IMG/VR virus record: IMGVR_UViG_3300022931_000781
Span: 1-50,203 of that record
Direction: 5' to 3' (one strand)
Source of the DNA: a virus
Length of the DNA: 50,203 nt
The first letter of the stretch is position 1. The number at the start of each line of letters is the position of its first letter. Both the position numbers and the translations under genes were made by a program. The notes beneath the pieces are model-generated. The model was not told the DNA's origin and ran no database searches. It saw only the letters and a list, made by a program, of their open reading frames with translations. Shown here one piece after another: positions 5,719 through 37,569 of the stretch.

Positions 5719-5732
5719 TTCGTTATCCTATA

Positions 5733-6822: not shown

Positions 6823-6858
6823 AATGCTGTTATTAAATAGTAGCATTTTTGTGTTTTT
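6823..6858 (+). terminator. Terminator-like hairpin, plus orientation
   Basis: On the plus strand the sequence AATGCT pairs with AGCATT across a short AT-rich loop region. G-U wobble pairs complete the stem only in the plus-strand RNA. It is followed directly by TTTTTGTGTTTTT. On the minus strand the same stem has two mismatches and no T-run. It would therefore stop transcripts running against the operon, although no plus-strand gene is present. It lies in the 79-base gap before the 350-aa gene; no minus-strand promoter of good quality is visible there. Confidence 0.4.
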
Positions 6859-6864
6859 AGCCTT

Positions 6865-9906: not shown

Positions 9907-9919
9907 ATTTTTTACCTAC

Positions 9920-13603: not shown

Positions 13604-13612
13604 AACTTATTC

Positions 13613-23500: not shown

Positions 23501-24713
23501 CCGATCCTGTATTCCTAGATTCTGGCACATAGTTTACAATTTGACCATTAGATATTCTTCCAGAATAATCAAGTACTATATTATCAACGGCGTTATTCTC
23601 GGTGATCCCCTCGTTAAAGCGGTAATATATTCCGAGATCAACATTCGCTATATATTTATCTGAGCCACCGTATACTCTTCCGTACCAGTTTTTTCCAACA
23701 TCTTCTGATGAGCGGGTAGATTTCCAATAACGGAACTCATCAATAGAGCCAGAAAGTTTTCCCCAACCAAGCATGCTCGCATCTGAAGAATCTGCTGTCC
23801 CAGAAGTAGCTGTGCGTAAAGCACCAATATTGCTTGTAAGTGATCCCTCAACAATGTTTATATCGCTATTTTGAGTTATCTGTGGACCCACGCAAGTTCC
23901 AGATTGATATAGATCAATCTTTGTAGTAGTACCGTTGGTGTCAACCGATAAAGAGAACTGGTTCCACTGTGAAGACCCTAAGTCTAATCCGCCAGTTGTC
24001 GGAACTGGGATTTCATAAAACCCGGTGGAGCCCGACTGGACCGTTAGAAAGAATCTATCCTGTTCTTCAGAACTTAGTGCAAGAGTAAATCTGCCGTAGT
24101 CATGTGAAGAAGACAAATTCCCGTTCCACACATCAAATATAACTTCTCGGGATGAAGTGACCTGTGAAACTGCCCAATCCTTTTTGACAAAGAACTCAAC
24201 AGTTGAACCAGAGACGCCACCAAACGATAAGTTATTTGTTCTATTATCAGAAGTAGAATAAATTGTTCCGATTTGTGGGCCACCCTTGGTTTGGATATAT
24301 TCTACAGAAGAGGAGTAATATCCTGAAGAGTGGCTTATTGGTGTTCCGTATGAAGTCCCGAGTGTGACATACCCTGTTGACTTAGGATATTTTTCATCTA
24401 AGATGTACTTTTCTAACGGGTTCAGATCATTGTAGAACTTAGTTTGTTCTAATGAAGATCCATCATATGGATAGCTTCCGGATATATGATCAAATGATAA
24501 AGAGTAATATTTCTCTGCTGACCCATACTTTACGAACTCAGCGGGGTCTGCATAATTTAGCGGGGGTATAAATGCCCGGTCTCTTTTAATGCTCTCACTA
24601 AGATGAGCGGCGGATTCTATTCCTTCGCCAGTAGCATCAGCAGCCGTCTTTTTGAGATATTTGTTGACGGTGGTTGCTTGTCTGCTCTTTTCAAATAATC
24701 CTTTTATACTCAT
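14547..24713 (-). CDS. Giant baseplate protein, 3388 aa, two LamG-like domains, gpI-like motif and basic tail
   Basis: The longest gene in the window. Residues about 158-375 read as a LamG/concanavalin-A-like beta-sandwich, including a W-N-x-F-S-L-S-V strand and LSGSIDEFRYWKSTRS. Residues about 660-885 look like a second, diverged copy (RKWNFALSVRPEKY). Between them, near residues 555-595, lies LKSKGNEKSIRNTIRCFGI, which resembles the lysine-glycine motif of the P2 gpI tail family that joins baseplate wedges. The remainder is Ser/Thr/Gly-rich and beta-like. The last 135 residues are very basic with SPSK, SPKR and SPKG motifs and look disordered. It overlaps the 493-aa gene by 4 bases. I infer a wedge protein that combines gpI/gp7-type roles with lectin-like surface domains. 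Confidence 0.8.
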   Translation of the reverse strand: MSIKGLFEKSRQATTVNKYLKKTAADATGEGIESAAHLSESIKRDRAFIPPLNYADPAEFVKYGSAEKYYSLSFDHISGSYPYDGSSLEQTKFYNDLNPLEKYILDEKYPKSTGYVTLGTSYGTPISHSSGYYSSSVEYIQTKGGPQIGTIYSTSDNRTNNLSFGGVSGSTVEFFVKKDWAVSQVTSSREVIFDVWNGNLSSSHDYGRFTLALSSEEQDRFFLTVQSGSTGFYEIPVPTTGGLDLGSSQWNQFSLSVDTNGTTTKIDLYQSGTCVGPQITQNSDINIVEGSLTSNIGALRTATSGTADSSDASMLGWGKLSGSIDEFRYWKSTRSSEDVGKNWYGRVYGGSDKYIANVDLGIYYRFNEGITENNAVDNIVLDYSGRISNGQIVNYVPESRNTGSAINEISVSSSVLTFREAGDPIIRNESAILINDRSNLVNLGIEYDRFNSSKITDMIPTWIIEEDKDSENELQNVTQVIASYFDTLHAQIGALTKVRNNEYISGSATGSISHFPHNDRILEAVGFDAPELFENATLIEKYLQKSDKIDFDQSLPDIKNSIYKNIYNNLTYILKSKGNEKSIRNTIRCFGIDDEVVSLNIYADNQDYNLDTEYKMAVSHKKYADFSGLRNRQDSFGSIYQHYNSDNPNSAGLIKGSNTLAPHAFTAEAEVIFPDRSGIARLSYEPIAVTDVSLFGFNTPAITDQTSTETAWANYGSDHGLRVAAVKSPSEYAEITSPGHAVKDAYFAVYDRAGTLVVSSSIFQNVYENRKWNFALSVRPEKYNFADGVFGTEIDSPTDKYILELYGVSYDTGIKRNSFCVTSSIGATSGSAIVASSKRMFLGAHRNNVTGTVTNYSDVRASSLLYWTDYIPTGTVDNHSKDVDNFGRKNPFRNTFGFQTGSNVNYIPEIETLALNWDFVTVTGSDTLGKFSVEDYSSGSAANGYASMYQGSALSSINLRQHTGMGNFFKANSQPVQKEYVETNKTQAPEYVASSDMIQVLDHDVEIFAPNRRPANYFFALEKSMYRSVSNRILQLFASIDDMNNLIGEPVNKYRLTYKSMEKLREIFFRKVENTPDLEKYVKYYKWIDSSIGQMVQQLFPASARHTEDIRTVIESHILERPKYQYHFLGNKKMINYPLPMGDGIVQSLGQSNNRNTRGWQYAHAPIPLDEAENGFWWKTRAERTISQLSQSGTGINSDRTGILAALQSEFTSSQRVYVTAEFLIGQDPQEERFEQRRSQAPAERDIVFDRFEPLPQSLETLNPNIRRPIRFRVIKDGVNYTSNILAPFRAYSSSVNTGYRATLENAGVVGVDFTNYHPRQISLQGPFGFQHVGGVHARHNPPLAQVDRSEIFNLSISSGTGSIVSVGPGNISAGHLTRGMTVTSPANIRNIRTTTGSISPTAGVSVIGNYKNTYEIVQTSDRRTINTDFVHNNSNYYSGGIVSSFVTSPSSRALGMTGSTDYLSSRQTGSARTNKSVIAQRFSSPGSYQDSSQLFRDPASDQLSPNNALPYRNINIRRAGNFGFMAGAGITSFLAAPAEWGGFITDINSSVYLPDLGPESLNTVFNAGNVPASFAAATSNAQGPNILSVPANGLASPFHKTQRNQTKRIKLSGESFITGSQKDNAFVTRPVPSADNFSWFLSLSGSDTTGSLNMDQYIQSGSRYPERVLVSPNSLPSSAISFGSSVITGSGTDLKYIWSLPTGFGPVSQLRAGSAPRAVHDRKHGRIHILPTNSNLSTDTKRISVNNKEKTYSDRAGNIITQRYSEEYTEPPVTAKYSPLIHTIRTYRGTPEITEYNQKMDVDVIYSYGNDMQAFANKGLNIVFGGSKKHISGKIKTPYEVIKGHYLSEVPRSITGVDKIKGFVYSEQIYPKEIHTFLSGTRTRQVFKFTAWEPDYLRPTTTVSSLSNVASLYDGSTIKTNVKTQSRLKTEFTTSQGYALRSEEQTPWYRFEDTINLSGISGAGTGSIWPMDTFMYADRVDEMLTVTAFASGGTTAGENIHLYPAAAGQMASGELMSCNYGNVIDGRGIPAAIANSGSTYYNTSSIVAAQYIYSVPNHKRLTDGTTQIDPYRPGGIATRPDWTAGLERKLVEPALGEPIYTQNRFPFYKNYESFVEDIRLISKENTIIPEFRISEHMTSYINRSNMLASFSGTISLTGASDHLTSSGQPEFMTRYSTTDFVEYLDTFMGYKTKDLQFNKAPKQFTMTSEAAVKLLPYDGFYPQTRTIEIAALFSQSYSSYVSYSGPDGDGETGHASRPERFRTILDPYYSPGILYNSIKSGIAVDHPVRRAGQTLPWNVTGSDYDPLQGALTGSWTVGMVGGGGIEPGQIPGSRRRRETGAETDFDFSAEARAGFFWSDRIPFESLLKPLDDISDLKSPLMPNDINSNMAMFVSASVLSSGSIKDVLYRSAISNFLAATPSFFLSEKPEGGHMTKIVAELPRKSPNTNPEGNQPASSTEPRTVSVNSGVAYMMEIGMRKTDQFNMYSNPYAFGPPTATGSADWYPNGTTTIPATTSSVGTVPEGKDWPLHRGEFAPFTPPYYYGPSLARITYMPQQDSEVTLTNILNSDDIYIEFLNSDGRYYDFASGSYSSLTSSAAIHGAATPNYMWNRAWQNRMDIDASIVIDNLFPTEVGGKIKPFDENKWVIMPKWECPVLDFPRDGTQLFANVGILEGGGIAAAMSGATLDMVLGGVSYNAVFENLSTTYPEDSTPTVIGIADPLIFPLKPNASNIARAIGISLNAARKENGLPILEVDITKNPITVVPMVKGDTTFSGSSTDGSITLGTLTAGTKILAVESTPYNFSASLSEDGYFNNVGEPNWTKGMWHQYGTMPSDGEGLFMYISDINNRSSEFRLAGAYVDATSANVSKVTAVKKVPLYVVQSGRTIGSLASLVGFNQEEIMPPNQWMPERAKPIGQLARNAEKTISEAIIAVPFYKDPRTGQTRAMTLRASSTALGPKIKEFRRAFTKYSLPPSLQKELAPLLPPDYPSIPDFINPFGGDDYDEILSPGDITSVPVVYLMEHTVALSRQDLSDIWQGVMPDISTAMKVSVTSIDHYMPGVASEQGTAVFPEILEKQLDIGIPRTGKPRIDLLDTTPLMDKNGFIPEIKWMVFRAKQRGPTSYTSMIIQEINGGVSAENFNSIFGYISQDLPPGAKASLAARKNVYTQNLYQSDKLGKGRNTYNWPYDYCSIIESAKISTKVTFRPELDIEDMPEEAPGPEVLDTRDEKSSGLTMEEVLASILKGQDNRQGQARSRQDGKQRQPRPQEEIVSLAIGGSPNLNNGLRTADVPVRSDPLKKAEARRPQKSVRPKKPKANPKVGKSKPKGIPAEKGKVSKSKSLSPSKSSPKRIYKLTGQDSPKGRVGKGVIRKSPSAKYSVNLRGKFKF

Positions 24714-26191
24714 GCCTTGTCTTCTTCTACCCTAAATTTGAATACTTCAGGTTGTTGGCGGTAGGACCCCTGCAAATAATAGCAAAATTGGAGATTATAA
24801 GAATAGCCCGACTCAAAGTTGGAGGTGTCAAGTTCAAAATAGTTACCGCTAACATCATATGAAAGCTGTGTGTAATTGTAGCTGCCTGTACCAAACGGTA
24901 ATATTTCCATATCATCTACCGTTCTAGAAACTCTATAATAAGCGGATTCAATTACCTCTGGTTTTATTTCAGAAGTTGCAACGGTATGAATGCTTGGCTG
25001 CCAATTCTTTTTGCGGGCGAATACACGAAGTCTTGGGGTTTGACCCTGCAAATAAGAACTATTCAAATTTGTAACATCGGTGATATATTCGTCTTCATAC
25101 AAGAGAGATTTAGCGTTGATAGATTTTGGCAGGATTGACCCCGTATAATATTGTACCGATCCCGAATGCCACACGTCATATATCTCTGTAAGTGTGCTTG
25201 TTGACGCGAAGGAAGCACTGTATATGCCGGTTATGTTACTGCCGTTTTCTATAAGAAGTCCGCCGGTAATATTTGTGACGGTTTCTCCAGAAGAATTTAT
25301 TATTTCAAGCGAGGCCCCATCAGGAGCGCCGGAGCTTCCGCTGTATAAGCTTATCAACACGTTCTGTGCGGTGCCGGCTAATCCAGGAATATCCTTAAGT
25401 TGACCGCGAATATTATTATATAGATAAACAGTGTTTATGTTGTCCGTCGCTGGTGCTAAACTACTAGACTGTACAAAGGTTGCACGGTTATCTTTTCTTG
25501 CAGAATCCCAACGAGCCTCTATTATGGGTCGCTTAAAGAAGTACTCGCTGGTTCTGCCAAAAAATCTCTTTGTGTAATATGATCCTTCGGCTCCAGAAAC
25601 AACTTCATCGTCCATTCTAAACAGAAAACCATAGTTACTAAGCTCGCCGGAGCGCCAGCGGTCCATGGCAAAACTTCCAATATCTAATTCCATATCTTCA
25701 ATGCCGCCAGAAAAGTGAAAGCTAGAAGAATATCCGGCCGCTGTCTGGTAATCGCTTCCCGTATTTGACCAAGCAGTAGTGGCTGTCGCATATTCCCAGT
25801 TTGATGAACCTGCATCAGAATAGTTTTCCATATCCAAACCAGAACCCTCTGACCAGTCTTTTGACGGCAGGAATACTCCGAGGCTAAAGCTCAAAGGAGT
25901 TGTATTCCCATGGGGAGCGTTATACATTTTTAGTTTATATTCTACACTAGATGACGGAATGATTCCGTTGGAGATATCATCCAAAATATTTTGGACATTG
26001 AACTGTAGCAAAACTCTAGACTGCTCCGCATTTTGAGCGCTAACGGATGCTGATGTTTGACCATGGATCACAAAGGTTTCTAATATATCTGAAGCGCCCA
26101 TGTTTGAGCCGGTGCCTCGTGTAGACAAATCACTTTTAAATGCGTTTGTGATTGTGTTGTCTTTTTCTGCAAAATATCTCTTTATTGCCAT
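24710..26191 (-). CDS. Baseplate-region structural protein, 493 aa
   Basis: The start MAIKRYFAEKDNTITNAFK and the following segments resemble beta-sandwich proteins of the DNRLRE type seen near baseplate genes of aquatic phages. Features are LLQFNV, a YKLKMYNA strand, an aromatic-rich W-S-N-T-G region and FFKRPIIEARWDS near residue 222. The C-terminus has a short FN3-like ending with YNLQFCYYL and FKFRVEED. The gene starts directly after the gp6 stop (TAAATG) and its end overlaps the giant gene (ATGA), so all three should be translated together. The role is probably structural, as a wedge or wedge-decoration protein; no enzyme motif is present. Confidence 0.75.
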   Translation of the reverse strand: MAIKRYFAEKDNTITNAFKSDLSTRGTGSNMGASDILETFVIHGQTSASVSAQNAEQSRVLLQFNVQNILDDISNGIIPSSSVEYKLKMYNAPHGNTTPLSFSLGVFLPSKDWSEGSGLDMENYSDAGSSNWEYATATTAWSNTGSDYQTAAGYSSSFHFSGGIEDMELDIGSFAMDRWRSGELSNYGFLFRMDDEVVSGAEGSYYTKRFFGRTSEYFFKRPIIEARWDSARKDNRATFVQSSSLAPATDNINTVYLYNNIRGQLKDIPGLAGTAQNVLISLYSGSSGAPDGASLEIINSSGETVTNITGGLLIENGSNITGIYSASFASTSTLTEIYDVWHSGSVQYYTGSILPKSINAKSLLYEDEYITDVTNLNSSYLQGQTPRLRVFARKKNWQPSIHTVATSEIKPEVIESAYYRVSRTVDDMEILPFGTGSYNYTQLSYDVSGNYFELDTSNFESGYSYNLQFCYYLQGSYRQQPEVFKFRVEEDKA

Positions 26192-27982
26192 TTACCTAAT
26201 AACTCCTTGAATATTTTCATCTGGAAACAGCAATTCTGCAACTGCATTTGCTGGGATTTTTATATATCTTCCATCATCAGATAAATTTGAGTCCATGTTG
26301 TGGTAAGAGGAGGAATAGACACCTCCGGACTTACTTTCTATTTCAACGGTTGTGGTATCCACAACACCAGGGATAGAATTTAGTGCTTTGTAAAAGTCCG
26401 TTATATAAATTGGATCGCCAAAGTTTTTCTTTATATTGATTACAGAATCTTTTATTTTATCTACACAATCGCTTAGTACTTCATACTTGTTTGCTGTGGC
26501 ATCAACTATCACCTCAAAGTTAACCCCGTAATTAATTATTTTTCCATCCATAATGTCTAGTGTATCATTCATCATCCGGTAAGAGTTCAACCAGTTTTTA
26601 AGGTTTGTCTTGAGTGTAGTATTGGCAATAGACAAATCACCCTCACTATCTTCGGACAAGACATACAAATTTAGATTTCTTTTGTTGGAGTCGCTGTCTC
26701 TTATTATATTGACTCGGCGAATTCTTCCGAATTTTGAGGGTAATCTATAGCATAACGAGATATAATCTGTTTTTGTTACTGCTCTATTTTGAGAGGCGTA
26801 TGCCGAATAGGCACGTTCTCGTATTTCTTCGGGCAGCAAGACGCTTGTATCACCGGTTATCGGCGAATCGTTGGAAGTTTCCAAAGACTGTATTATCTCA
26901 GTCATTGTATTCCGGTTCAAACTTGAGCGCTCTTTGAACACTAAATCTGGGTTGACCACCGAGTTGACTGCTCCGCTCTTCGCATTAGCATTTTCCTGGG
27001 TATTTGAACGATACTTTATTATCAAGGTTGTGTTCTCGGGAACAACTCCGAACTTATCACTGGTAATCAAATTCGTTGGATCAAAGGTTACATCTGTGGT
27101 GTGTGTCCTGCCAACGACATCAAGTACAACATCTGCCGGGTCGGAAATCAAATCGCTTGTTAGATTTTCCGAGGATCCATATCCAAATTGTATTGATACA
27201 TTTCCAATAGCATCATATTCCGTTGTAAATCTTCGTGGCACTGATTTAGATTTTAGAACATATGGAACTGTCTCTTTTTCATCTCCATAATTTGGAACTT
27301 GGGAGATGACCGTGTCTTGGGATAAAAAATCAACTTCGTAATATTCATTTCCCTGAGAGTCTGTTACTGATAATATTTCGGAAACGTTCTCGGCATCTAT
27401 TTCTGCTTTGAAAAATCTCTGGTAGTCTTCAACAATTAGAGATGTTTCTAACTCTTGCCCCGAAAGTATTTGTCCAAATGCCTTCACAGCATACCAAGTT
27501 GGGGAGCCGGTGGAAGAATCAACTCTTGCTACAGTTATTTCATTACTGGTATTGGAGAAATTTACATTCTCGTTCAAAGTGTATACATTGCCGCCGTCAG
27601 AAGATAGAAGAGCGCCTCTCTTCAATATCGGAAAATAATCTAAATCTGGTCCGCCGGTTGTAGACGCTGGCACTAAAATATAAAAAGTAGCGGTACCGGT
27701 GGAAGAAGCAGCGCCGGGCATCTTGAAGCCCATTTGTTTAGAGAGGCGAATAATATTTTGATATTCTAGAGCGCTGTCCAGGTAACTCTCGTTTGCCTGA
27801 TAATCTGCATAAAACGAAAGTTGGTCTCCGATATATGCTACCATATCTAGCATAAGAGCACCGAAGGAGGCTTCGTTAAAATCCTTATAAGTTGACGGAT
27901 AATATCTCTTGGCATAATTGACAAGATCATTTTTTATGTTTTTAAAATCTCTGTTTGTATAAGATATGGGTCTTTTCGGCAT
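26192..27982 (-). CDS. Baseplate wedge protein, T4 gp6 / P2 gpJ (baseplate J-like) family
   Basis: The gp6/gpJ family builds the inner ring of contractile-tail baseplates. The N-terminal 100 residues fit it: YTNRDFKNIKNDL, then FGALMLDMVAYIGDQLSFY and YLDSALEYQNIIRLSKQMGF. A beta-rich middle follows, and the C-terminal half has the helical and strand parts with VDTTTVEIESKSGG near the end. At 596 aa it is close to T4 gp6 (660 aa). It lies just after the gp25 gene in transcription order, as gpJ follows gpW in P2. ATG at 27982 has a GGGGAAG ribosome binding site within a 48-base gap. Confidence 0.92.
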   Translation of the reverse strand: MPKRPISYTNRDFKNIKNDLVNYAKRYYPSTYKDFNEASFGALMLDMVAYIGDQLSFYADYQANESYLDSALEYQNIIRLSKQMGFKMPGAASSTGTATFYILVPASTTGGPDLDYFPILKRGALLSSDGGNVYTLNENVNFSNTSNEITVARVDSSTGSPTWYAVKAFGQILSGQELETSLIVEDYQRFFKAEIDAENVSEILSVTDSQGNEYYEVDFLSQDTVISQVPNYGDEKETVPYVLKSKSVPRRFTTEYDAIGNVSIQFGYGSSENLTSDLISDPADVVLDVVGRTHTTDVTFDPTNLITSDKFGVVPENTTLIIKYRSNTQENANAKSGAVNSVVNPDLVFKERSSLNRNTMTEIIQSLETSNDSPITGDTSVLLPEEIRERAYSAYASQNRAVTKTDYISLCYRLPSKFGRIRRVNIIRDSDSNKRNLNLYVLSEDSEGDLSIANTTLKTNLKNWLNSYRMMNDTLDIMDGKIINYGVNFEVIVDATANKYEVLSDCVDKIKDSVINIKKNFGDPIYITDFYKALNSIPGVVDTTTVEIESKSGGVYSSSYHNMDSNLSDDGRYIKIPANAVAELLFPDENIQGVIR

Positions 27983-28030
27983 ATAACTTCCCCAGTTTGC
28001 TTCAATAATTAGTGTTCTTATTGGGTTTAT

Positions 28031-28420
28031 TTAGGCTATCGTGAGAGTATCTTTACTGTCCACTGAGCCAAGGTTGTAATTTATGGAAATAGCCACTCTA
28101 TTTGTATCCTCTCCTAGTGCGTCAGTTACCGGTGCAAATCTGACATCTTCTATAACAACAAATGGCATAAACCTTCTGGTTTGTTCATTTATTGATACAA
28201 TAACTTTTTCACGCAGTCTCGGATCTATATTTTCAAACAACAATCTTTTTAGCCCTACCCCAAAATCTGGTATCATGATTCTTTCACCTGGACTTGTAAG
28301 GAGCAGGTTCTTAAAATTTTGTTTTACTGTTTGACCAATATTCTTATTCAACCTAAATGGACCATCTATTGGATCGTAGGTTAAAGGTAGCCTTACAGAA
28401 ATTCCTTCTAACTTTGACAT
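28031..28420 (-). CDS. Baseplate wedge protein, T4 gp25 / P2 gpW family
   Basis: A 129-aa protein of the gp25/gpW family, one of the most conserved contractile-injection components, which initiates sheath attachment at the baseplate. Family marks are the start SVRLPLTYDPIDG, the helix before LLLTSPGERIMIPDFGVGLKRLLFE (the central E-R-x-M-x-P-x-F-G-x-G-L block near residues 42-62), and a C-terminal strand pattern ending NRVAISINYNL. The length is typical (T4 gp25 is 132 aa). It is followed by the gp6 homologue and preceded by the 2148-aa protein. The upstream ribosome binding site is GGTAAAG. Confidence 0.95.
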   Translation of the reverse strand: MSKLEGISVRLPLTYDPIDGPFRLNKNIGQTVKQNFKNLLLTSPGERIMIPDFGVGLKRLLFENIDPRLREKVIVSINEQTRRFMPFVVIEDVRFAPVTDALGEDTNRVAISINYNLGSVDSKDTLTIA

Positions 28421-28453
28421 GTTTCTTTACCGCCTTATACCTAAATATCTCTA

Positions 28454-31400
28454 TTATTCAATTTGGTGACGGGATAACTCATTTTCTAGAGTATCTAAAT
28501 CCGACAAAATTCTTTCTTTTCTAAACTCGTAGGTGAATTGTCCATTTATTGGTATGCCCGAGTTTCTTATACTATCATATAGGTCCTGGATATCATCAAC
28601 GCTATCCATTACGCCCGGCTGGCCGTAGTCGCCGCCGGCGATATCCTGGAGACCACTAAGCCCTACTGCCATCGTTCTTTGGTCTACACGCGTTCCGATG
28701 AGGCGATTTTTCCAGTTGAAAATAAGGTTTCGGGTCGGCGCGTCCTCATCCCTGCCGGCGTCGGCAATGCCATAAGCACTAAATGACGCTAAAATTTCTA
28801 CTAAATCCGCGAGGAAATCCTCAATACCATCTTCCAAATCAATTCCCTCTTGAAGGTCTAAACCCCCGAGTCTGAGGAAGTTCTTGAATTCTCTGCTTAT
28901 ATTGTCTACAATATTCTGAAAAGACTGCGAAGCCGATGACCCGCTAATCATAGCTGTGGAGTAGGTCCTCACCATCCAACTGGCAATGCTCATCCCGTCT
29001 AGATCTTGTTCGGCGGCAGCCTCGGCGGATCTTTCTAAACTATCTGCCTCTCTCCATAGGCGATCATAGGTAGACCTGTGTTCATTTAAAACAGCAATAC
29101 TTGTAAACAGTAACGATGCGCGGATTTCCCTTATCTTCTCTTCTAGCTCGTCAGTACTGAAGAATACTGCCGGTTCGCCGTCAATATTCAAGTATGCTGG
29201 AAATTTAGATTGGGGAGTTGGGTCTGCTGCAATATATTCTTTTAGCTCTTCTATTTCATTGAACTGTGACTGTGGGTCTACAAGTGGCTTAATATCCCTT
29301 GATTTAGTAGCAAGTTCATAATATAAATGATTAATCGCCACTTTCTCCAAAGTATTTTCGTGTGCCGGTAAAGCTTTAGCACAGTCATACATATCTTCCG
29401 GAGTTGATAAGTTTACTGTTCCATAACGGGTCGCGGCCGGGGTGTCGCGAAGAGACCTTAAAGAATCAGATTCATCGGGGTCGCGAAAGACATCACCGCC
29501 ATCAAAAAAGTTTGCGATGCCGTCGTATACGGAGCCCATCCATGCGCCTATTAGCCAAGGTCCGATCGCCGTCAAAGTGAGTAGAGCGCTGCCCGCGCCG
29601 GACCAACTAAATATATCGTTTCTTGCATCTTCTGATATTGATCCTAGTCCAGAATTTAAAATTGTAGTGATGTGGTTATTATCATATACTCCGGGAGACC
29701 ACATATTTTGCTTAAGCTGGTGGGTTCTCAGAAATACAGTGATCGCCCTAGCTTGTTCGGATGCGTTGGGGTGGTCGTTAGCGTCTTTGTAGGCTGCGAT
29801 GAGAGTTGCGTCTGCATCGTCAGACGGTGCCCAGCCTATTAGTCTGGCACGTTCATACCAAGCCCATGGATTAAACTGCATTGATCCGCTCTGAGAATCG
29901 GGTGCGCCCATCGCGATCGCTAGGTTTTCATGACGAGACATGAAATCGTATTTCAAGGCTGCGATAATAAGTTTCTTTTGCCCGGCAACCGTAGGATATA
30001 GAACTCTAAACTCTCTAAATGTTCTCGGGTTTGAATATATGTGGTTAAACGATACTTTGAATTGGGTCACGTTTTGTTCAAGCTTTATCGGGTTGCCGTC
30101 GTCATCTGTTATCGGGTCGCCAAACTCGTTTGCCGCCCGCTGGAGATAAGAATTAGGGGCATATGAAGTTTGAAGCGTTGCTAGTGGTCCGAACATTCTC
30201 TCAAGACTAAATATTCGCTGTCTTTGTTCTTCAAGAAATTCAATTCTTTTCTCCACTTCTTCCTTTGAATAATATGTATTGCCGCCAATGACAACAGGAT
30301 ACCCATCATATGGGTGACTGAAAATTGTAATGTTTTGATCATTGATTGCGCTCAGTAGAGCGTCATCCGCCAAAGCAACCCGCTGTCCAGCATAAAAATT
30401 CAGCGATGGGAACTTTTTAACAAAGTTGACACCCTTGTCATAATGAATAATATTCAGAGCGATTGTTAGAGGTACGGGAACATAATTTTGAAAGACTGCT
30501 GAACCCCAAATGGCTGGGGATATTGGTCCGAGGGAGGACTGTCCGTCTATCAAAGTAGCATTAGATAAAGAAGCTTCTGATAAGTCATATTGGTTATATA
30601 TATCATCGCCTAGGCTTCTTAGTCTTTCCGATGTTCCACTTTGGACATATTCTGCTAGTGCGGTGAACCAATCCCCGGTCATATTATCTTCAAAAATGTT
30701 TTTGTTTACCGTAGTGGATGCTCTGTTAAATTCAAGGCGTTTAAGCATTTGTAGAAAACACTGTTCAACTATATATTCTAATTTTGCCCTCACTGTTTCT
30801 TTAGATCTGATATCAAATGTAATTTCTGGGGCTGGACCATCCGGATCTTCTTGTCGTACTATTTTATCTTGCCGGTCGTTCGGCATAAAATCTTCAATAT
30901 ATTGGATAGAATTATAATATAAATCTAATATGTTTTTTTCTCTCATATCTTTTTCTATTTCTGCTGCCAAATATGAAGAGACCATTTTAACCGTGTCCGG
31001 AGTTTTCCAAGACATATAGACTCGTGACAGGGGTCCGGCATTCATTAGGAAGTTTACTATCCGGACCTGTATTCCCCCTAATGCAGCAACTGCTATAACC
31101 TCTTCATTGGGGTTTAAACAGAGCGGGTCGTCCACCGTAGTAAAATTTGGTTCTGCCATAGTGGCGGTGATTTTTCGTAGTTTACGCTGTCCACGATCAG
31201 TCAAATAAAAGTTTTTTAGTTGATCTTTGATTGTCTCGTATGTATTTTCTGCCAGTAAACCAAATTTATATGGGTTCGGGTCTGACGGGTCTAAATGTGC
31301 GCTAGCTATAGAAGTTGCGCCCTTGAGCATACGTCCAATTCTTTCTATACTGTCACCCTGTCCCACAGGGGGATATCCCATTCTCTTCAGCCAAAGGTTT

Positions 31401-34400
31401 GGGCGTCCATAGGTATTATGCATATCATGTGGGCTTATATTATCACCAGGTTTATTTGTCTCAGATAACTCGAACGACGAGATGAGTTTCATATTTTCAC
31501 CCGGTGGTTTGTAATATATTCCTACTCTATTCTCTCCCAGAAAAGTAAAGGATGTCTCGCCGGTGTTACCGCCGCTTACAGACCATTTTATATGTCCAGC
31601 AGAGGCTTCTGTGGACCGTAGGTGAGAGGCGATACTAAGTTCTAGGGCAAGCTTTGAATCACCATAAAACTGGTTAGCAGCCTGATACATTTGAGTTTCT
31701 TCTATTGGTGTGCCGGCTAGCGCCTGCGATGGTGCTTTAGCTTGTTGTAAAAGTGCTTCCTTGATTGCGTTAGCTGCTGCATTACTGTAAGAGGAAATCT
31801 TCGCCAGAAGGTCTGTATAGAATTGCGGTGGTCCGAGAGTGGCTGTAAATTCTTCAATCTCTGCCTGAAACGAGAAATTCGCCTTCATTAGGTCGCATAA
31901 TCCCTGCACCTTTTTTATTTTGGAATCAATTTGTTTATCAATTTGTGCTTCTAGTTGTACCTGAGTTAGCCCCATTGCTACCGGTGTCGGGACTAGCGGG
32001 TCGCGAATATCACAATAAGCCCGGTTTGGATCTAACCCAGGTAAAGAACCAACGATGTCGCCAAGGTGTTCCCCAAGTATTCTATAATATTGTTCTATTT
32101 TTTGGGGGGTGAGTCCAAATGTTGCGTAGATAATATCTCCATATTGGAGAGAGTGTTGGCGCTCGGCGAGTACTAGAGGGTTGCTTAGTTCCTCTCTGGT
32201 TAAACCGTCCAAGTTTGCCTGTCCACGATTGACCATTTCGTCTACAACCCCAACTGTAGATTCGGAAGCATTTGATGCCAATATCCCAAGAACTTCTCCC
32301 TTGAGTAAAACATCTGAAGTATCCTGGTTGAACTGTCTTAGTTGTTCTAGGAGCGGTGGTGAGATTTGCTTATTCTTTGGGTCATCCTCTGTTGGTCTAA
32401 AGTAGATGTTTTTTATATCTGCCAACTCGGCGATTGCCAATAGATCTATACCACCCTTTTTATCAATCAAATCATTTATTTGAAGCTCACCATAACTTGC
32501 TATTTCAGACTCTCTCTTAAAATCTGGGGTAGGCTTATCCGCCGATTCTTCTGGTCCACAGCCAAGAGCCGCAGAAACTAAATCTTTAAATATCCCCAGA
32601 ATCAACTGCTCAATATAATTTAAAAGAAGCTGCTTAAACTTCTTTCTCCAGGCTTTAAAAAAATCTCTTGTTGGAGATTTAGAGAATTTGATGCCCCTAG
32701 GAGGCTTGACAGCGGCTGTCAGCATTTTACTAGCGCCGGGGGGAACACCAGCGGGATCTAGTATTTGTTCTTTTATGACATCTCCGATAATGTCAAATAT
32801 ACAAAACAGTTCTTGATTTATTTCTCTCTCAATCAGCCGGGCAACCTCGTCTGGGTGTTCCGCATAGAATTGTGCCTGTCCGATGACATATTTTGCAGTC
32901 TTATCTGAAATTATTTGGTCACGGAGAATTGTAATAGCAAGCGCAACTAAATCCTTAGTCTTCGCCTTGCGGCTCATCATAGTATATAATCTCATACCAT
33001 TACGCAGTATGGCTGCTTGATCCGTGCTACATGATCCTGCGGAAGACGCCAGGACAGAACGGACAGAAGAATACATATCCTTATCCCCGAAAAGGCGGGA
33101 TCTTACTTTTTCCCTGGATCTTGCTGCGGTGATGTGTACCTCGTTGGATGGACGAGTATTTCTCTTTTTAGCTGCTTCTTTTCTTTTATTTTGGACATCT
33201 TTAGGGTAAATTACCGGGGAGGGCCAGGTATAAGTTTGTATGAACTCCATCCACCCAAGTGACTCTTCGTGGTTATCTTTAGTTAGAACCGTGGAAATAT
33301 CTGGTGAGAAAAATATGTATCCAAATGTTGTTGGGGAAATATCATAGAAGACTCCCTTAGAGGGTGTTCCCTCTTCGGCTATCTTTGTTATACCGTTTAA
33401 GTATATTTTTCCTTCAACAACAATGTACTGAAGCTCAAAGCTAGCGCTGAACTTGAACTCTATTTTATCGCTGGCTGCGGGCTGCAGCTTATTCAGCTTA
33501 AAAAACTTCTCTAATACGGAGTAGAATGTTGATAAACTATCAAGTTCTTTTTTTAGGTCAAGTCCGCTCATTGTAGATGGGTCTGCGCCATTTGCTGTTG
33601 CTTGTTCGTGGTATTTTCCAAGAACACGAACAGTCGCTGCTATATTACTCTTTAGTCCCGAGATAGTGAAGGCAACCTGTCGGTCGGCGCTCATATTTTC
33701 AAGAATATATAGAGAGGTGGCTAAGTTTGAAAGAGTAGAGTCAGCATCTGCCTCTGTCCCGTCAGAAGGTAGCCCATCTATTAGAGCTTTTGATATCTTC
33801 CCACTAACTATCCACCTGCGGGGGGGCGGGGGAATAACTCTTTTGACATTAGAATCAGAAGGAGAATCTTCAGATTCTTTTAGTATTGGACGATCAGGAT
33901 CTCCATAAAATGTTTCTACCGTTGTTCTTCCTAGAATATCCTCATTCTGCCGATTTTCTGGTGTAAACTTCCCCGCAGATCTTAAAATAGCGCCCAGTGC
34001 GATACCTTTAAACGTTGCTATTTTGTCTATCAAGGGGGCGTTGTTTCCAATTGTGCCAAGATCCCATTCGCTGCTATCTAGACTATCCGTTCGTTGGACA
34101 AAATAATACATATTATCGTCGCGACAATAATATGGTTCCGGATTTGGGTTATTGGCAGGAGCGTTGACAAACGGGTTCGTGCCAGTTTTAATATTTTTTG
34201 GTGTTGAGCCCTCAGCTTCTATATCTTCCTCTGCCGCTGAAGCGGGTGCCGGGGTTTCACCAAATGATTTTAATATATCTTTTTTTCTCTGCGATGATAT
34301 TACATCCGGAGGTGATGTTAGCTGTGCCCAGTCACTTGAGTCTGGGGTAGACGAAGCGTTGGTTTGGTTATCGGGGTCCTGGAACTCCTCGGTTGTTACT

Positions 34401-34900
34401 GTTAACAAATTTCTGCCACCAAATGATCCGCCACGAGCAATCATGGCCGTGATTATTCCACCAAGCTGAGTTCTTGATGCCTCGGCAGTAATGGGAGATA
34501 AAATCAAGGGTCCACCCAAAGCGGTGTCAGAAGGGTTAACCGGACTATCTTCTGGGACATCCGTGGCAGGGGCGGTCAGCGATCTAAGAACTTCAGCGTT
34601 TTGTGGGTATAGCGCCGCATAAGCCAAGGCATCAGGGCGAGTTATCATGTTGTTCGGGATACCGTTAGTAGCACCCGCTAGCGGTCCTGTTGCCTCAAGA
34701 ACTAAACCAATCTTTGGAAAACTACCATATTTCAGGAAATATAAATGGATGCCGGTTATTATCCATTGGCTTCGGGGAGTTTCGTAATCATAGCTTCCGT
34801 TTCTTCCGCCGATTTCAGAAGTGATCGCCACTTCCGTAGAAGTGAAACTACCAGGAAGTGGGTTGATGATATTTTTTTGGTGGTCGCTGATTCTTGTCAT
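28454..34900 (-). CDS. Giant structural protein, 2148 aa, baseplate region
   Basis: I do not recognise this protein by family. It sits between the spike-like gene and gp25, where a hub or inner-baseplate protein would be expected. The N-terminal 500 residues are polar and loop-rich. The middle is strongly helical, including an amphipathic basic stretch near residues 745-780 (KKFKQLLLNYIEQLILGIF). A strongly hydrophobic patch near 1775-1795 (LLTLTAIGPWLIGAWMG) could contact or enter a membrane, or be buried in a trimer. The C-terminal 150 residues are again polar and helical. ATG at 34900 has AAAGAG as ribosome binding site. Tape-measure identity seems unlikely because of its mixed content; this is a judgement, not a test. 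Confidence 0.75.
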   Translation of the reverse strand: MTRISDHQKNIINPLPGSFTSTEVAITSEIGGRNGSYDYETPRSQWIITGIHLYFLKYGSFPKIGLVLEATGPLAGATNGIPNNMITRPDALAYAALYPQNAEVLRSLTAPATDVPEDSPVNPSDTALGGPLILSPITAEASRTQLGGIITAMIARGGSFGGRNLLTVTTEEFQDPDNQTNASSTPDSSDWAQLTSPPDVISSQRKKDILKSFGETPAPASAAEEDIEAEGSTPKNIKTGTNPFVNAPANNPNPEPYYCRDDNMYYFVQRTDSLDSSEWDLGTIGNNAPLIDKIATFKGIALGAILRSAGKFTPENRQNEDILGRTTVETFYGDPDRPILKESEDSPSDSNVKRVIPPPPRRWIVSGKISKALIDGLPSDGTEADADSTLSNLATSLYILENMSADRQVAFTISGLKSNIAATVRVLGKYHEQATANGADPSTMSGLDLKKELDSLSTFYSVLEKFFKLNKLQPAASDKIEFKFSASFELQYIVVEGKIYLNGITKIAEEGTPSKGVFYDISPTTFGYIFFSPDISTVLTKDNHEESLGWMEFIQTYTWPSPVIYPKDVQNKRKEAAKKRNTRPSNEVHITAARSREKVRSRLFGDKDMYSSVRSVLASSAGSCSTDQAAILRNGMRLYTMMSRKAKTKDLVALAITILRDQIISDKTAKYVIGQAQFYAEHPDEVARLIEREINQELFCIFDIIGDVIKEQILDPAGVPPGASKMLTAAVKPPRGIKFSKSPTRDFFKAWRKKFKQLLLNYIEQLILGIFKDLVSAALGCGPEESADKPTPDFKRESEIASYGELQINDLIDKKGGIDLLAIAELADIKNIYFRPTEDDPKNKQISPPLLEQLRQFNQDTSDVLLKGEVLGILASNASESTVGVVDEMVNRGQANLDGLTREELSNPLVLAERQHSLQYGDIIYATFGLTPQKIEQYYRILGEHLGDIVGSLPGLDPNRAYCDIRDPLVPTPVAMGLTQVQLEAQIDKQIDSKIKKVQGLCDLMKANFSFQAEIEEFTATLGPPQFYTDLLAKISSYSNAAANAIKEALLQQAKAPSQALAGTPIEETQMYQAANQFYGDSKLALELSIASHLRSTEASAGHIKWSVSGGNTGETSFTFLGENRVGIYYKPPGENMKLISSFELSETNKPGDNISPHDMHNTYGRPNLWLKRMGYPPVGQGDSIERIGRMLKGATSIASAHLDPSDPNPYKFGLLAENTYETIKDQLKNFYLTDRGQRKLRKITATMAEPNFTTVDDPLCLNPNEEVIAVAALGGIQVRIVNFLMNAGPLSRVYMSWKTPDTVKMVSSYLAAEIEKDMREKNILDLYYNSIQYIEDFMPNDRQDKIVRQEDPDGPAPEITFDIRSKETVRAKLEYIVEQCFLQMLKRLEFNRASTTVNKNIFEDNMTGDWFTALAEYVQSGTSERLRSLGDDIYNQYDLSEASLSNATLIDGQSSLGPISPAIWGSAVFQNYVPVPLTIALNIIHYDKGVNFVKKFPSLNFYAGQRVALADDALLSAINDQNITIFSHPYDGYPVVIGGNTYYSKEEVEKRIEFLEEQRQRIFSLERMFGPLATLQTSYAPNSYLQRAANEFGDPITDDDGNPIKLEQNVTQFKVSFNHIYSNPRTFREFRVLYPTVAGQKKLIIAALKYDFMSRHENLAIAMGAPDSQSGSMQFNPWAWYERARLIGWAPSDDADATLIAAYKDANDHPNASEQARAITVFLRTHQLKQNMWSPGVYDNNHITTILNSGLGSISEDARNDIFSWSGAGSALLTLTAIGPWLIGAWMGSVYDGIANFFDGGDVFRDPDESDSLRSLRDTPAATRYGTVNLSTPEDMYDCAKALPAHENTLEKVAINHLYYELATKSRDIKPLVDPQSQFNEIEELKEYIAADPTPQSKFPAYLNIDGEPAVFFSTDELEEKIREIRASLLFTSIAVLNEHRSTYDRLWREADSLERSAEAAAEQDLDGMSIASWMVRTYSTAMISGSSASQSFQNIVDNISREFKNFLRLGGLDLQEGIDLEDGIEDFLADLVEILASFSAYGIADAGRDEDAPTRNLIFNWKNRLIGTRVDQRTMAVGLSGLQDIAGGDYGQPGVMDSVDDIQDLYDSIRNSGIPINGQFTYEFRKERILSDLDTLENELSRHQIE

Positions 34901-34923
34901 TATTGACTCTTTTTTAGTTTGTT

Positions 34924-35856
34924 TTAGTTTGTATTGTTATAAGCACTACAAATATAGCCCTCACCCCAAGGCCATAAATAGTTTTGTTCTACCATTATAC
35001 AGTTTTGCTGATGGGCTAAGATGTCCGTCATAAACGGGGTAACCTTCACAGTAAACTCGTTGAATGCAAAAGCAGCCGCGTCAGGCGATGGAGAGGTTGG
35101 GTTTCCGGGAGCAGTAGTAATATGAGTATGAACTGCGAATGACGCCAACATCCGAGTATAGGTTACAAAGTGAGTTAATAAAAGACCATTTAGGTCGGCG
35201 ACTAACTCTATAACTTCGCTAAGTGCCTCAACTGTTTTATCACCTTTTATCAGGGGTTCTAGTTCATAATCGTTATTTCCGGCAATAAGATCAATCCCTT
35301 GAATCGCATCTATTTTTATTCCCTGTGAGTTATAGTTATCAACTCCGGTTATTAGCTTAATCCCTTCCCTGCCTATTATTCTAACGCCGTCAGCTTTTAT
35401 TGCAATACCAGAACGAGAGCCGGGATTTCCCACAAAACCAGCAGCTAAGTTAAAATTCTCATCTATATCGGTTTTCTGACTAACATAAATTCTTGCTGCG
35501 TCTAATGAGGTGGACTTATTGGTGTATATCTTTTCACCTTTTTCGTTTGTCTCCTTCGCAAAACGGCCAGATAATCCTGCTATGATATCTATACAAGAAC
35601 TATGAGAATGTCCCTTGCCACCATAACCACTGCTTTCATCGGACGGGCGGTCGCGACCAATTATAATATATTGCCCGTTTTTTCCTCCTGCAATGTCTGT
35701 TTCGTTGTTATGGGGGTTGTGATAATTTGGATGAGGCTCTACGAGGTTATCATTGTCAAAACCACTATTGTTTTTATAATAATCTTGTACCTTCCCTTTT
35801 TCCTCAAGGGTGACGGGACTCAGATTTGACATCAAATGAGTATGGATTTTTGCCAT
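34924..35856 (-). CDS. Baseplate spike-like protein, 310 aa
   Basis: The N-terminal half is rich in Gly, Asn and His, with GKGHSHSSC near residue 81. It is followed by repeated short strands such as RSGIAIKADGVRIIGREGIK and QGIKIDAIQGIDLIAG, which read like rungs of a triple-stranded beta-helix. A helix and a VHTHITTAPGNPTSPSP segment follow near residue 245, then a short tail. The HxH motifs and the H-T-H-x-(n)-P-x-x-P-x-S-P pattern recall tips of gpV/gp5-type spikes, where His pairs bind a metal ion. That comparison is from family knowledge and was not tested. It overlaps the hub gene by one base (TAATG). Likely the spike attached to the M15 hub. Confidence 0.7.
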   Translation of the reverse strand: MAKIHTHLMSNLSPVTLEEKGKVQDYYKNNSGFDNDNLVEPHPNYHNPHNNETDIAGGKNGQYIIIGRDRPSDESSGYGGKGHSHSSCIDIIAGLSGRFAKETNEKGEKIYTNKSTSLDAARIYVSQKTDIDENFNLAAGFVGNPGSRSGIAIKADGVRIIGREGIKLITGVDNYNSQGIKIDAIQGIDLIAGNNDYELEPLIKGDKTVEALSEVIELVADLNGLLLTHFVTYTRMLASFAVHTHITTAPGNPTSPSPDAAAFAFNEFTVKVTPFMTDILAHQQNCIMVEQNYLWPWGEGYICSAYNNTN

Positions 35857-37238
35857 TATGGTCCTTCAAACGGGCGATCGGTGGTATGGGCGAATCTCTC
35901 ATTCCCTATATATCCTTTACCTTTATGAGTATTCCACTTCGCTTCTCTCTGTTGAAAGCCGTGGCTGTTGCTGGTCACAAACGCTGGCCAAGTGCCGCTG
36001 CGGAAGGCGGTGTCCTTTTTGACCCTGGCAAATGGTCCGGATGCTCTTATCATTGCCGGTCTATACTCCCAATGCCAGCGCTCTTTTGGTACGGTTCTGA
36101 TAAACCCATATTCTACTGCATGTTTCGTGAGCCACGCATAAGATGTTCCGCCGACGCCGCCGGTGCTAAAATCAACCGCGATGCCAGACTGGTGGCTTGA
36201 GGTGCCTGGTTTTGCTGCGAAGCCAGGACGATGCAGGTTTTTATTATAAAGCTCTGTCTGTTTTTCCATCGTCCTAAAACCCGAGTTGACTAATAATTCC
36301 ACGCCGTCTTTTTTCGCATCTGCTATCATTTTTTTTAGGTATTTACTAAAAGGTGTTCCGCCGGGGGTTTTTTTCGCTATAACATATATATCTCTGTTTG
36401 GTCCGAAGCCTTTACCTGGGTTCCCCTTGATATAGTCCAATTCTATGGGTCCGAGTGACTTTCCTCCTGCCCATGCAATATTATTTTTTGCTTTCACCAG
36501 TTCTTCTAAGAGAGCAGAAGGACCACAAGGAGGTGGACTGACTGATCCGCTGACTATAGCGGAGTTACCGCTCGTGCCAGCAGTTGCAGGTTTGCCAACA
36601 GAGCCAGGAACGTTAGTGTCAGTTCCTTTTCCTACACCACGCTTGGAGTTGGGGGAACCCTTCTTTTTGTTTGCACCTGCCACACCACCTGTGGATCCTG
36701 GTTTGACCTTAGTCTTTGAGTGATTTTCAGGGCATTCCCATATAATTGAACTAAATCCGGCGGTAAATGGCACAGATTGTTCAAGCAGTTCTAGTATCCT
36801 ACCATTTTGGTACCTTAGTGCAGTATGATGTTTATCTATGTGTTTGACCCGAACAAGACGTCCAGGATTGTGACCGGTGCCGACGCCGGGGTCATTGCTT
36901 ATATATTCGGGGTACATATCTATAACTTGTGCGTCGTTTTGACTTCTTGGTAGTGGTAGATGTGCATGAATTTCTGGGATTCTTGCTCTCACTATTATAG
37001 GACTAGGCATGGCAGTCATAGTGTTTGCATGAATTTCTGAGGTCCTCAATATAATTGCGGTATGCTCAGTTAGCTGATCTTCTTTGTCTGGTTGATATTT
37101 CCGAATTGCTTCAGCATGAACAACGCCGAGGAAATTGTCATTTAGATTAAGAGGGCGCTTGATACGAGGCTTGACACGGTTCGGTATCTTTGATATCTTT
37201 TTGTCAACGTTGATATTTTGTTTTGGTGTACTAGCCAT
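35856..37238 (-). CDS. Baseplate hub protein with OB-fold and M15 (VanY-type) peptidase domain
   Basis: Two parts are visible. Residues about 40-170 are beta-rich with strands such as FLGVVHAEAI and GRLVRVKHIDKHH, as in the OB-fold of gp5/gpV hubs. A Gly/Lys/Thr/Pro-rich linker (about 180-240) leads to a peptidase domain of the M15/VanY family: SGFRTMEKQTELY near 319, SSHQSGIAVDF near 346 with the zinc-binding His and Asp, and WHWEY near 388 with the second His. It would cleave peptide cross-links in cell-wall peptidoglycan during injection, where T4 gp5 uses a lysozyme. I choose ATG at 37238, which overlaps the upstream gene by 8 bases, over an upstream TTG at 37259. Confidence 0.82.
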   Translation of the reverse strand: MASTPKQNINVDKKISKIPNRVKPRIKRPLNLNDNFLGVVHAEAIRKYQPDKEDQLTEHTAIILRTSEIHANTMTAMPSPIIVRARIPEIHAHLPLPRSQNDAQVIDMYPEYISNDPGVGTGHNPGRLVRVKHIDKHHTALRYQNGRILELLEQSVPFTAGFSSIIWECPENHSKTKVKPGSTGGVAGANKKKGSPNSKRGVGKGTDTNVPGSVGKPATAGTSGNSAIVSGSVSPPPCGPSALLEELVKAKNNIAWAGGKSLGPIELDYIKGNPGKGFGPNRDIYVIAKKTPGGTPFSKYLKKMIADAKKDGVELLVNSGFRTMEKQTELYNKNLHRPGFAAKPGTSSHQSGIAVDFSTGGVGGTSYAWLTKHAVEYGFIRTVPKERWHWEYRPAMIRASGPFARVKKDTAFRSGTWPAFVTSNSHGFQQREAKWNTHKGKGYIGNERFAHTTDRPFEGP

Positions 37239-37527
37239 TATTCTGGTTGAGGATATCAAATAATTGTTGTTTGTCCATATCGTTCAACTCATTATTTGTC
37301 TGTCCTTGCTCCTTTTTATGTACTAGCGTTGCTAGCTTTACCAATTGTTCATTACTCCTTTGAAGAGTTTCTACAAATTTGGCAGCGGTAGCTCCGGAGT
37401 CTGCATATCTTTCTTTTGAAACACTCATGAACTCTTTAAGCTCAGACAGAAGACCTTCTGTCTCCTGCCTGTCATTCTTTATATTTTCTAAGGCTTGTTC
37501 TATAAGTCCTTCAAGTTTTTTTACCAC
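37231..37527 (-). CDS. Short coiled-coil protein, 98 aa
   Basis: A highly charged helical protein with heptad-like spacing of Leu, Ile and Val across most of its length (KLEGLIEQALENI onward), rich in Glu, Lys, Gln and Asn. No motif identifies it. The start GTG at 37527 is preferred because a perfect GGAGG lies 8 bases upstream. An earlier in-frame GTG at 37542 overlaps that GGAGG region, so it is less likely. Its stop overlaps the start of the M15 hub gene. It could be a chaperone or small tail-associated protein by position, which is inference only. Confidence 0.65.
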   Translation of the reverse strand: MVKKLEGLIEQALENIKNDRQETEGLLSELKEFMSVSKERYADSGATAAKFVETLQRSNEQLVKLATLVHKKEQGQTNNELNDMDKQQLFDILNQNNG

Positions 37528-37569
37528 GTTGTCTACCTCCACATTTCTGCTATATTAAGTAGGTCGCGA

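What the first reader, a model, noticed from the sequence alone, without database searches (positions are those of the whole stretch)
24710..37238. P2-like V-W-J-I gene order hidden in a greatly enlarged baseplate operon
Hub/peptidase, spike-like, (2148-aa insertion), gp25/gpW, gp6/gpJ, (493 aa), gpI-like giant: the core order of a simple contractile baseplate is kept while inserted or fused proteins enlarge it. The baseplate and tail-tip genes from 3.3 to 37.5 kb take up about two thirds of the window, suggesting an unusually massive baseplate.
Basis: partly seen in the sequence, partly recalled or inferred. Interest (0 to 1): 0.55.

Follow-up and report, generated by a model that had tools for sequence, protein, structure and literature searches.

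The report
Oversized phage baseplate gene module
This piece of a marine bacterial virus carries the genes for the cell-gripping end plate of its tail, in the usual order but with two giant proteins, one of a kind already known from ocean viruses of cyanobacteria and one that matches no described family.

Summary
On the minus strand, in order: 467-aa VanY hub/spike, 310-aa spike-side protein, 2148-aa giant (GA), gp25, gp6, 493-aa protein, 3388-aa giant (GB). The order is a clade trait: gp25-gp6 adjacent in 41 of 41 contigs, GA-gp25 in 29 of 29. "P2-like" is wrong in kind: gp6 is T4-type and a 190-kb relative has T4-type portal and terminase families. GB's size is not new: seven of eight cyanophages examined have 3,045-8,573 aa in the gp7 slot, and a 1,937-aa one was found in S-CREM2 virions (PMC10665884). 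GB's growth is resolved here: two lectin-like jellyrolls (Z 18.6, 15.8) interrupt a small core shared with ordinary-sized relatives, followed by a long tail. GA is the new part: no accepted relative in Pfam, PHROGs, PDB or 50,697 phage records; six cysteines invariant in 20 of 20 relatives; it diverges nearly as fast as the spike hydrolase, far faster than the wedge; sister lineages lack it. "Two thirds of the window" reflects fragment size: the module is 18% of a 190-kb relative.

The parts
37570..38322 (-). 250-aa sigma-like protein (weak late-sigma match), first gene of the conserved module
   Evidence: phrog_234 E 0.0029; next to the 103-aa gene in 33 of 33 contigs
37231..37542 (-). 103-aa conserved small protein
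35856..37259 (-). 467-aa hub/spike protein with VanY peptidase domain (window 36057-36344); ATG start likely at 37238
   Evidence: VanY PF02557 3.4e-17; slot holds other wall hydrolases in relatives
34924..35856 (-). 310-aa spike-side protein; fused to the spike-slot protein in lineages without GA
   Evidence: HMM matches at residues 203-427 of L026, 185-360 of L020, 218-492 of L024 spike-slot proteins
28454..34900 (-). GA, 2148-aa giant: largely helical over the modelled part, six invariant cysteines at 624, 700, 781, 963, 1002, 1261; no known family
28031..28420 (-). gp25 / gpW-type sheath initiator
   Evidence: PF04965 1.3e-13, phrog_261 2.2e-16
26192..27982 (-). gp6-type baseplate wedge protein, 596 aa
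   Evidence: phrog_219 6.8e-19; PDB 9f4a gp6 1.7e-8, 9gtp J-like 2e-7
24710..26191 (-). 493-aa protein between gp6 and GB, possibly CBM96-like at the N-terminus
   Evidence: adjacent to gp6 in 34 of 35 contigs; CBM96 E 0.1 in 1 of 8 members (weak)
14547..24713 (-). GB, 3388-aa giant in the gp7/gpI slot
23466..24380 (-). GB first lectin-like jellyroll (residues 112-416, pentraxin/LamG fold)
   Evidence: AlphaFold2; VIA-align Z 18.6, rmsd 3.1-3.2 A, 207-218 aligned; Laminin_G_3 passes its cutoff in L007, L016 and L049
22839..23441 (-). GB conserved core 1 with the SKG(T/N) motif (residues 425-625)
   Evidence: shared with 1265-1400-aa homologues; hhalign to the cyanophage gp7-slot profile, score 36.5 against a maximum of 19.2 in 20 shuffles
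21759..22820 (-). GB second jellyroll inserted inside the core (residues 632-985)
   Evidence: Z 15.8, rmsd 3.3 A, 209 aligned; absent in L003, where the two core pieces are about 64 residues apart
21321..21677 (-). GB conserved core 2 (residues 1013-1131)
3288..14509 (-). six downstream module genes (298, 1227, 1013, 350, 384, 406 aa), function unknown, order conserved
   Evidence: G003, G004 and G009 keep all six in order; G005 has one extra 303-aa ORF among them; G006 has an unmatched 1105-aa ORF in the 1227-aa slot

Best explanation
This is the baseplate (hub plus wedge) module of a deep-branching, marine T4-like myovirus. Shown here: gp25 and a T4-type gp6 lie next to a giant, GB, that occupies the gp7 slot, and two lectin-like jellyrolls are inserted around and inside GB's small conserved core. 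Inferred: (gp6)2-gp7-type wedges form as in T4 and XM1, and GB's lectin domains and long C-terminal tail project from the wedge to bind host surface glycans and anchor fibres. GA sits between the spike genes and gp25 and diverges like the spike. The most likely reading is that GA is a large helical, spike-side hub/periphery protein that works with the central piercing device (467-aa wall hydrolase plus 310-aa protein) during envelope penetration, its six cysteines holding a metal site or cross-links. The wedge identity is well supported. The GB-gp7 homology is moderately supported. The role of GA is inference, about 0.35.
For: gp25 and gp6 by Pfam, PHROG and PDB profiles. Synteny over 42 contigs. 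Portal, terminase and sheath families in the 190-kb relative. GB core shared with ordinary-sized homologues, with insertions located. Jellyrolls by AlphaFold2 plus VIA-align and Laminin_G_3 above cutoff in relatives. Core 1 against the cyanophage gp7-slot profile, score 36.5 (20 shuffles at most 19.2), and against P2 gpI, 27.1 (at most 15.1), all on the same SKG motif; the cyanophage profile against T4 gp7 94.5%. A 1,937-aa gp7-slot protein detected in S-CREM2 virions, 91 unique peptides (passage of Table 3). GA: 29 of 29 adjacent to gp25; mean pairwise identity 0.29 against spike 0.23 and wedge proteins 0.54-0.64; partial correlation given gp6 of 0.72 with spike, 0.77 with p310, 0.27 with GB, 0.01 with the sigma-like gene.
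Against: Core 1 against T4 gp7 directly does not beat the shuffles (19.6 against 23.5), and the gp7 core is modelled with low confidence, so no fold test of it exists. GA has no fold match and a mediocre model (pLDDT 61). GA's residual correlation is also high with gp25 (0.60) and p493 (0.65), so linkage and clade-wide rate explain part of it. No virion data exist for this virus. In G006 and L015 the GA slot holds big proteins with hardly any detectable similarity.
Confidence: 0.62

Rival explanations
1. GA is a wedge-periphery or arm protein (tail pin, fibre anchor) that only happens to be encoded on the spike side; its fast change reflects contact with host receptors.
For: It diverges fast while six cysteines stay fixed. 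In L071 against L075 GA and spike differ strongly (66% and 52% identity) while GB and p493 are 98-100%, as for exchangeable host-contact parts.
Against: The modelled part is largely helical, unlike the beta-rich pins and fibres of T4 (recalled); its rate tracks spike and p310 more than GB.
Confidence: 0.3
2. GB is not a gp7 homologue but a lectin-bearing receptor-binding protein that replaced gp7 in the slot.
For: No significant direct match to T4 gp7; two lectin-like domains. PMC7029224 reports T4 gp7 as absent and seemingly replaced by VrlC in pelagimyophages and cyanomyophages (passage).
Against: Core 1 matches the cyanophage gp7-slot giants and P2 gpI above the shuffles on the same motif, and those giants match T4 gp7 (94.5%). 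The core is kept in relatives that lack the insertions.
Confidence: 0.2
3. GA is a virion-carried protein injected into the host (ejection protein) rather than a baseplate part.
For: Large, helical, fast-evolving, no known fold.
Against: It lies strictly between spike genes and gp25 in 29 of 29 contigs, far from the head genes in G003.
Confidence: 0.12

Closest known systems
Cyanophage gp7-slot giants (P-RSM6 8573 aa; phrog_701, phrog_2885; 'baseplate wedge initiator' of SynMITS9220M01 and ACG-2014f)
   Same: gp25-gp6-giant order in P-RSM6; weak but above-shuffle core similarity at the SKG motif; a LamG-like stretch is hinted in P-RSM6 (not significant).
   Different: Most of the sequence is unrelated to GB. 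GB has p493 between gp6 and itself. No GA was seen beside them: in P-RSM6 99-, 137- and 1240-aa proteins precede gp25; the nature of the 1240-aa protein was not tested.
Synechococcus phage S-CREM2 baseplate (gp25, gp6, 1937-aa wedge protein)
   Same: Same three-gene order; all three found in virions by mass spectrometry. Its gp6 matches the window family's HMM at E 8.8e-22.
   Different: No p493 and no GA beside them; the direct core match to its gp7 is weak.
Flavobacterium Immutovirus and Microcystis phage Mel-JY01
   Same: Closest named phages by gp6 (30.6% and 32.0%); the sigma-like, gp25, gp6, p493-type and GB-core genes are in the same order.
   Different: GB homologue only 1265 or 1336 aa; the GA slot holds two small proteins.
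T4 wedge genes 25, 6, 7 and P2 genes W, J, I
   Same: gp25 and gp6 homologues, order 25-6-7-type.
   Different: T4 gp7 is 1032 aa, P2 gpI 176 aa; GB is 3388 aa with lectin insertions; no gene of GA's size lies in the T4 or P2 stretches looked at.

Membership tests
T4-type contractile baseplate wedge (gp25, gp6, gp7) | gp25/GPW domain protein | tested here: met
   PF04965 1.3e-13, above cutoff
T4-type contractile baseplate wedge (gp25, gp6, gp7) | T4-sized gp6 homologue next to gp25 | tested here: met
   phrog_219 6.8e-19; PDB 9f4a gp6 1.7e-8; hhalign to T4 gp6 66.5% over residues 7-424
T4-type contractile baseplate wedge (gp25, gp6, gp7) | gp7-type core-bundle protein in the third slot | tested here: inconclusive
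   Core 1 against cyanophage gp7-slot giants 44.5%, score above 20 shuffles; against T4 gp7 not above shuffles; core not confidently modelled
P2-type simple baseplate (V, W, J, I) | short gpJ (about 300 aa) and short gpI (about 180 aa) | tested here: not met
   596 aa and 3388 aa against 302 and 176 aa in P2
LamG/pentraxin (concanavalin A-like) jellyroll in GB | Laminin_G_3 profile or fold match | tested here: met
   Fold Z 18.6 and 15.8; Laminin_G_3 in 4 of 8 members at E up to 0.1, best 5.6e-27, not in the window's own sequence; above cutoff in L007, L016, L049 of six scanned
Tail-lysin hub/spike (gp5/gpV slot) | peptidoglycan-cleaving domain | tested here: met
   VanY 3.4e-17; nine of ten spike-slot proteins scanned (window included) carry a wall hydrolase of some kind
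Tail-lysin hub/spike (gp5/gpV slot) | OB-fold plus beta-helical spike | tested here: inconclusive
   OB-like N-terminus seen by eye only; p310 against T4 gp5 0.5%
Any known family, for GA | curated profile match above cutoff | tested here: not met
   Pfam best E 0.02, below cutoff; PHROGs best E 0.25; no PDB sequence match
Virion protein | present in purified particles | not testable with these tools
   no virion data for this virus

The most novel reading that the evidence does not exclude
GA founds a new class of giant tail-tip protein: a spike-side hub extension, locked by six invariant cysteines (metal or Fe-S site, or cross-links), that varies and is exchanged together with the wall-hydrolase spike as one host-envelope cassette, while the lectin-laden wedge stays nearly fixed.
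Probability: 0.2. Interest if true: 0.62.

Novelty: new variant of a known kind. Interest (0 to 1): 0.42.

Why it matters
It shows concretely how a contractile baseplate grows: a small gp7-type core stays recognisable while lectin domains are spliced around and into it and a long tail is added. GA gives a sharply defined, testable unknown, a giant protein fixed in one operon slot with six immovable cysteines and nearly the divergence rate of the cell-piercing device. If confirmed in virions it would add an unmodelled component to the T4-like baseplate plan.

Tried and rejected
P2-type baseplate: rejected on protein sizes and T4-type relatives. Tape measure in the module: not seen; in G003 an 821-aa protein after the tube gene carries a weak tape-measure match (E 0.0028) and stronger lysin matches. 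GA in PHROGs, Pfam, PDB sequences, phage records: nothing accepted. GA by fold: Foldseek none at E at most 0.001, VIA-align all Z under 5. GA in cellular genomes: 26 pattern hits, none confirmed (pattern-based, limited sensitivity). GA family membership of the same-slot giants G006 (4029 aa) and L015 (2088 aa): only short weak matches, pattern of six cysteines not evident. Direct GB-T4 gp7 and GB-P2 gpI single-sequence comparison: nothing significant. T4 late promoter TATAAATA: 6 found, 4.2 expected, no signal. p493 as CBM96: E 0.1 in 1 of 8, left open. VrlC sequence was not fetched or compared. Rates: the first screen found only one near-identical GA pair, so seven chosen pairs were compared instead; GA had the lowest identity of the genes compared in 7 of 7 (one pair lacks GB and p493).
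Full report
Observation. The window is a whole 50,203-base virus record, so probably a fragment. Its structural genes are all on the minus strand. Reading from 38.3 kb down: sigma-like 250 aa, 103 aa, 467 aa with a VanY peptidase domain, 310 aa, 2148 aa (GA), gp25, gp6, 493 aa, 3388 aa (GB), then 298, 1227, 1013, 350, 384 and 406 aa, RuvC-like resolvase and primase. The share of two thirds (67.7%) is real for this fragment, but the homologous stretch is 18% of a 190.5-kb relative.

Relatives and synteny. A scan with gp6 gave 24 viral loci and a scan with the GA alignment 27, 42 contigs in all with the window; several are near-identical and contig IMGVR_UViG_3300022902_001182 is practically the same virus (GA 99.9% identical). 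Adjacent where both genes are present: gp25-gp6 41 of 41, GA-gp25 29 of 29, p310-GA 27 of 27, p493-GB 32 of 32, gp6-p493 34 of 35. Of 41 contigs with a gene directly before gp25, 29 have GA; 4 have another long ORF not recognised as GA (2088 aa, and three cut by contig or locus ends, one of them 4029 aa when seen in full in G006); 5 have a 466-658-aa spike-slot protein; 3 have a spike-slot protein with a p310 part. Among named phages the nearest gp6 proteins are in Microcystis phage Mel-JY01 (32.0%) and Flavobacterium immuto phages (30.6%); there the GA slot holds two small proteins and the GB homologue has 1336 or 1265 aa.

T4 type, not P2. gp6 matches phrog_219 and the solved gp6 chain 9f4a (E 1.7e-8) and a J-like chain 9gtp (2e-7). 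Profile comparison gives 66.5% to T4 gp6 over residues 7-424 and 62.9% to P2 gpJ over the C-terminal part only. In G003 the portal is phrog_213, the terminase phrog_2, and the sheath a 1046-aa protein of phrog_23; that these are the T4 gp20, gp17 and gp18 families is recalled. The equivalence of the XM1 (gp16)2-gp17 complex with T4 (gp6)2-gp7, and of gp15 with gp25, is stated in PMC10457771 (passages seen), with gp17 at 242 aa against 1032 in T4.

GB. An HMM of the family aligns to the short homologues of Mel-JY01 and LR756508 only in three blocks, about 42-79, 425-625 and 1013-1131, and to that of immuto in the last two. In immuto these two blocks are about 64 residues apart instead of about 400. 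In Mel-JY01 and LR756508 the first and second are about 80-90 apart instead of about 350. The two intervals are the two confident parts of the AlphaFold2 model (mean pLDDT 54 overall): residues 112-416 match pentraxin/PAPP-A LamG folds at Z 18.6 (rmsd 3.1-3.2 A, 207-218 aligned) and residues 632-985 another jellyroll at Z 15.8. Laminin_G_3 passes its cutoff in L016, L007 and L049 (of six scanned) but not in the window's own sequence. So lectin-like domains are inserted before and inside a small core. In the shorter G012 and G018 proteins the first jellyroll interval is present (one alignment over about 46-623). The core's second block carries an SKG(T/N) motif. Against a profile of eight cyanophage gp7-slot proteins it scores 36.5 (44.5%, 20 shuffles at most 19.2); against six P2 gpI relatives 27.1 (13.0%, shuffles at most 15.1); against five T4 gp7 relatives 19.6 (1.1%, shuffles up to 23.5), all three on the same motif; the cyanophage profile itself matches T4 gp7 at 94.5%. 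GB is therefore probably a gp7/gpI-type protein, not proven. GB is under purifying selection (dN/dS about 0.06 in the pairs of 78-79% identity where dS could be estimated).

Giant gp7-slot proteins are already known, in databases at least. P-RSM6 has gp25, gp6, then 8573 aa. Its first 901 residues match phrog_701 (6136 positions) and phrog_2885, 'baseplate wedge subunit', 4179 positions. A 400-residue piece has relatives in 494 of 50,697 phage records. Lengths computed from the annotated coordinates of those fetched: S-RIM12 6376, MED4-213 4458, S-CAM3 3045, Sf-CH5 4878, SynMITS9220M01 4067, ACG-2014f 4225, Melnitz-2 896 aa. In S-CREM2 the order gp25, gp6, 1937-aa wedge protein is found, and all three were detected in virions (11, 113 and 91 unique peptides; Table 3 passage of PMC10665884; record). 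Pelagimyophage authors report no T4 gp7 in pelagimyophages and cyanomyophages, VrlC in its place, and concanavalin A domains in the structural operon (PMC7029224, passages). I did not find a paper describing GA or this clade's baseplate (searches; listings seen; passages read).

GA. No curated family, no solved sequence, no phage record at E up to 0.01, no confirmed place in the cellular genomes scanned. The model of residues 390-1565 is largely helical, mean pLDDT 61, without fold match. In 20 non-redundant members (of 34 ORFs of at least 1700 aa) six cysteines are present in 20 of 20 (624, 700, 781, 963, 1002, 1261 of the window), and the 1817-aa L062 protein has no others. Among 18 contigs (153 pairs) mean identity is 0.29 for GA, 0.23 spike, 0.43 p310, 0.54-0.64 for gp25, gp6, p493 and GB (first 1200 residues), 0.75 for the sigma-like protein; GA is less conserved than every one of these except the spike in 153 of 153 pairs, and less than the spike in 6 of 153. 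Given gp6, GA's distances correlate with p310 (0.77) and spike (0.72), p493 (0.65), gp25 (0.60), GB (0.27), sigma (0.01); neighbour linkage explains part of this. In L071 against L075, GB is 98% and p493 100% identical with low synonymous difference (0.22, 0.13), but GA is 66% (pS 0.76) and the spike 52%, which points to exchange of the spike-GA side by recombination.

Spike side. The spike-slot protein carries different wall hydrolases in relatives: VanY (window, L015), M23 (L018, L068, L071, L072), muramidase (L062), SLT (L070), M15 (G006), none found in L007: nine of ten with one. In L020, L024 and L026, which lack GA, the p310 part is fused to the spike-slot protein.

Conclusion. A baseplate module of a known type with one giant of a known kind, resolved here into core and lectin insertions, and one giant of unknown kind whose position and rate tie it to the cell-piercing device. 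Everything about where the proteins sit in the particle is inference.

Noticed in passing
window 35856-37259 and spike-slot proteins of L015, L018, L062, L068, L070, L071, L072, L042: The wall-cleaving domain in the spike slot is exchangeable: VanY, M23, muramidase PF11860, SLT or M15 in the same position; nine of ten scanned.
   Followed up: partly
L071 and L075: GB and p493 nearly identical but spike and GA strongly divergent with high synonymous difference, as if the spike-GA side had been swapped by recombination.
   Followed up: partly
window 39198-50082: A run of sugar-metabolism genes (UDP-GlcNAc 2-epimerase Pfam 7.5e-67; by eye epimerases/dehydratases, a cytidylyltransferase-like protein, FkbM-like methyltransferases, an alpha-1,2-fucosyltransferase-like protein) directly upstream of the tail module.
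   Followed up: no
window 13613-14509 and 5733-6785: The 298- and 350-aa proteins share an N-terminal 'LTxxGxxxLAxGxF'-type motif by eye and both recur in distant relatives.
   Followed up: no
L002 (Mel-JY01) 28999-37945: The 384-aa protein family is present as five ORFs in a row in Microcystis phage Mel-JY01.
   Followed up: no
G005 (L047/L048) and L065: GB is split into 1613 + 1957 aa in G005 and GA into 359 + 1632 aa in L065; real gene splits or assembly errors.
   Followed up: no
L086 13908-39629 (P-RSM6): An 8573-aa gp7-slot protein taking 13% of a cultured cyanophage genome, annotated only as hypothetical.
   Followed up: partly
L030 3618-6758 (G003): The tail sheath protein of the 190-kb relative is 1046 aa, long for a sheath protein.
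   Followed up: no
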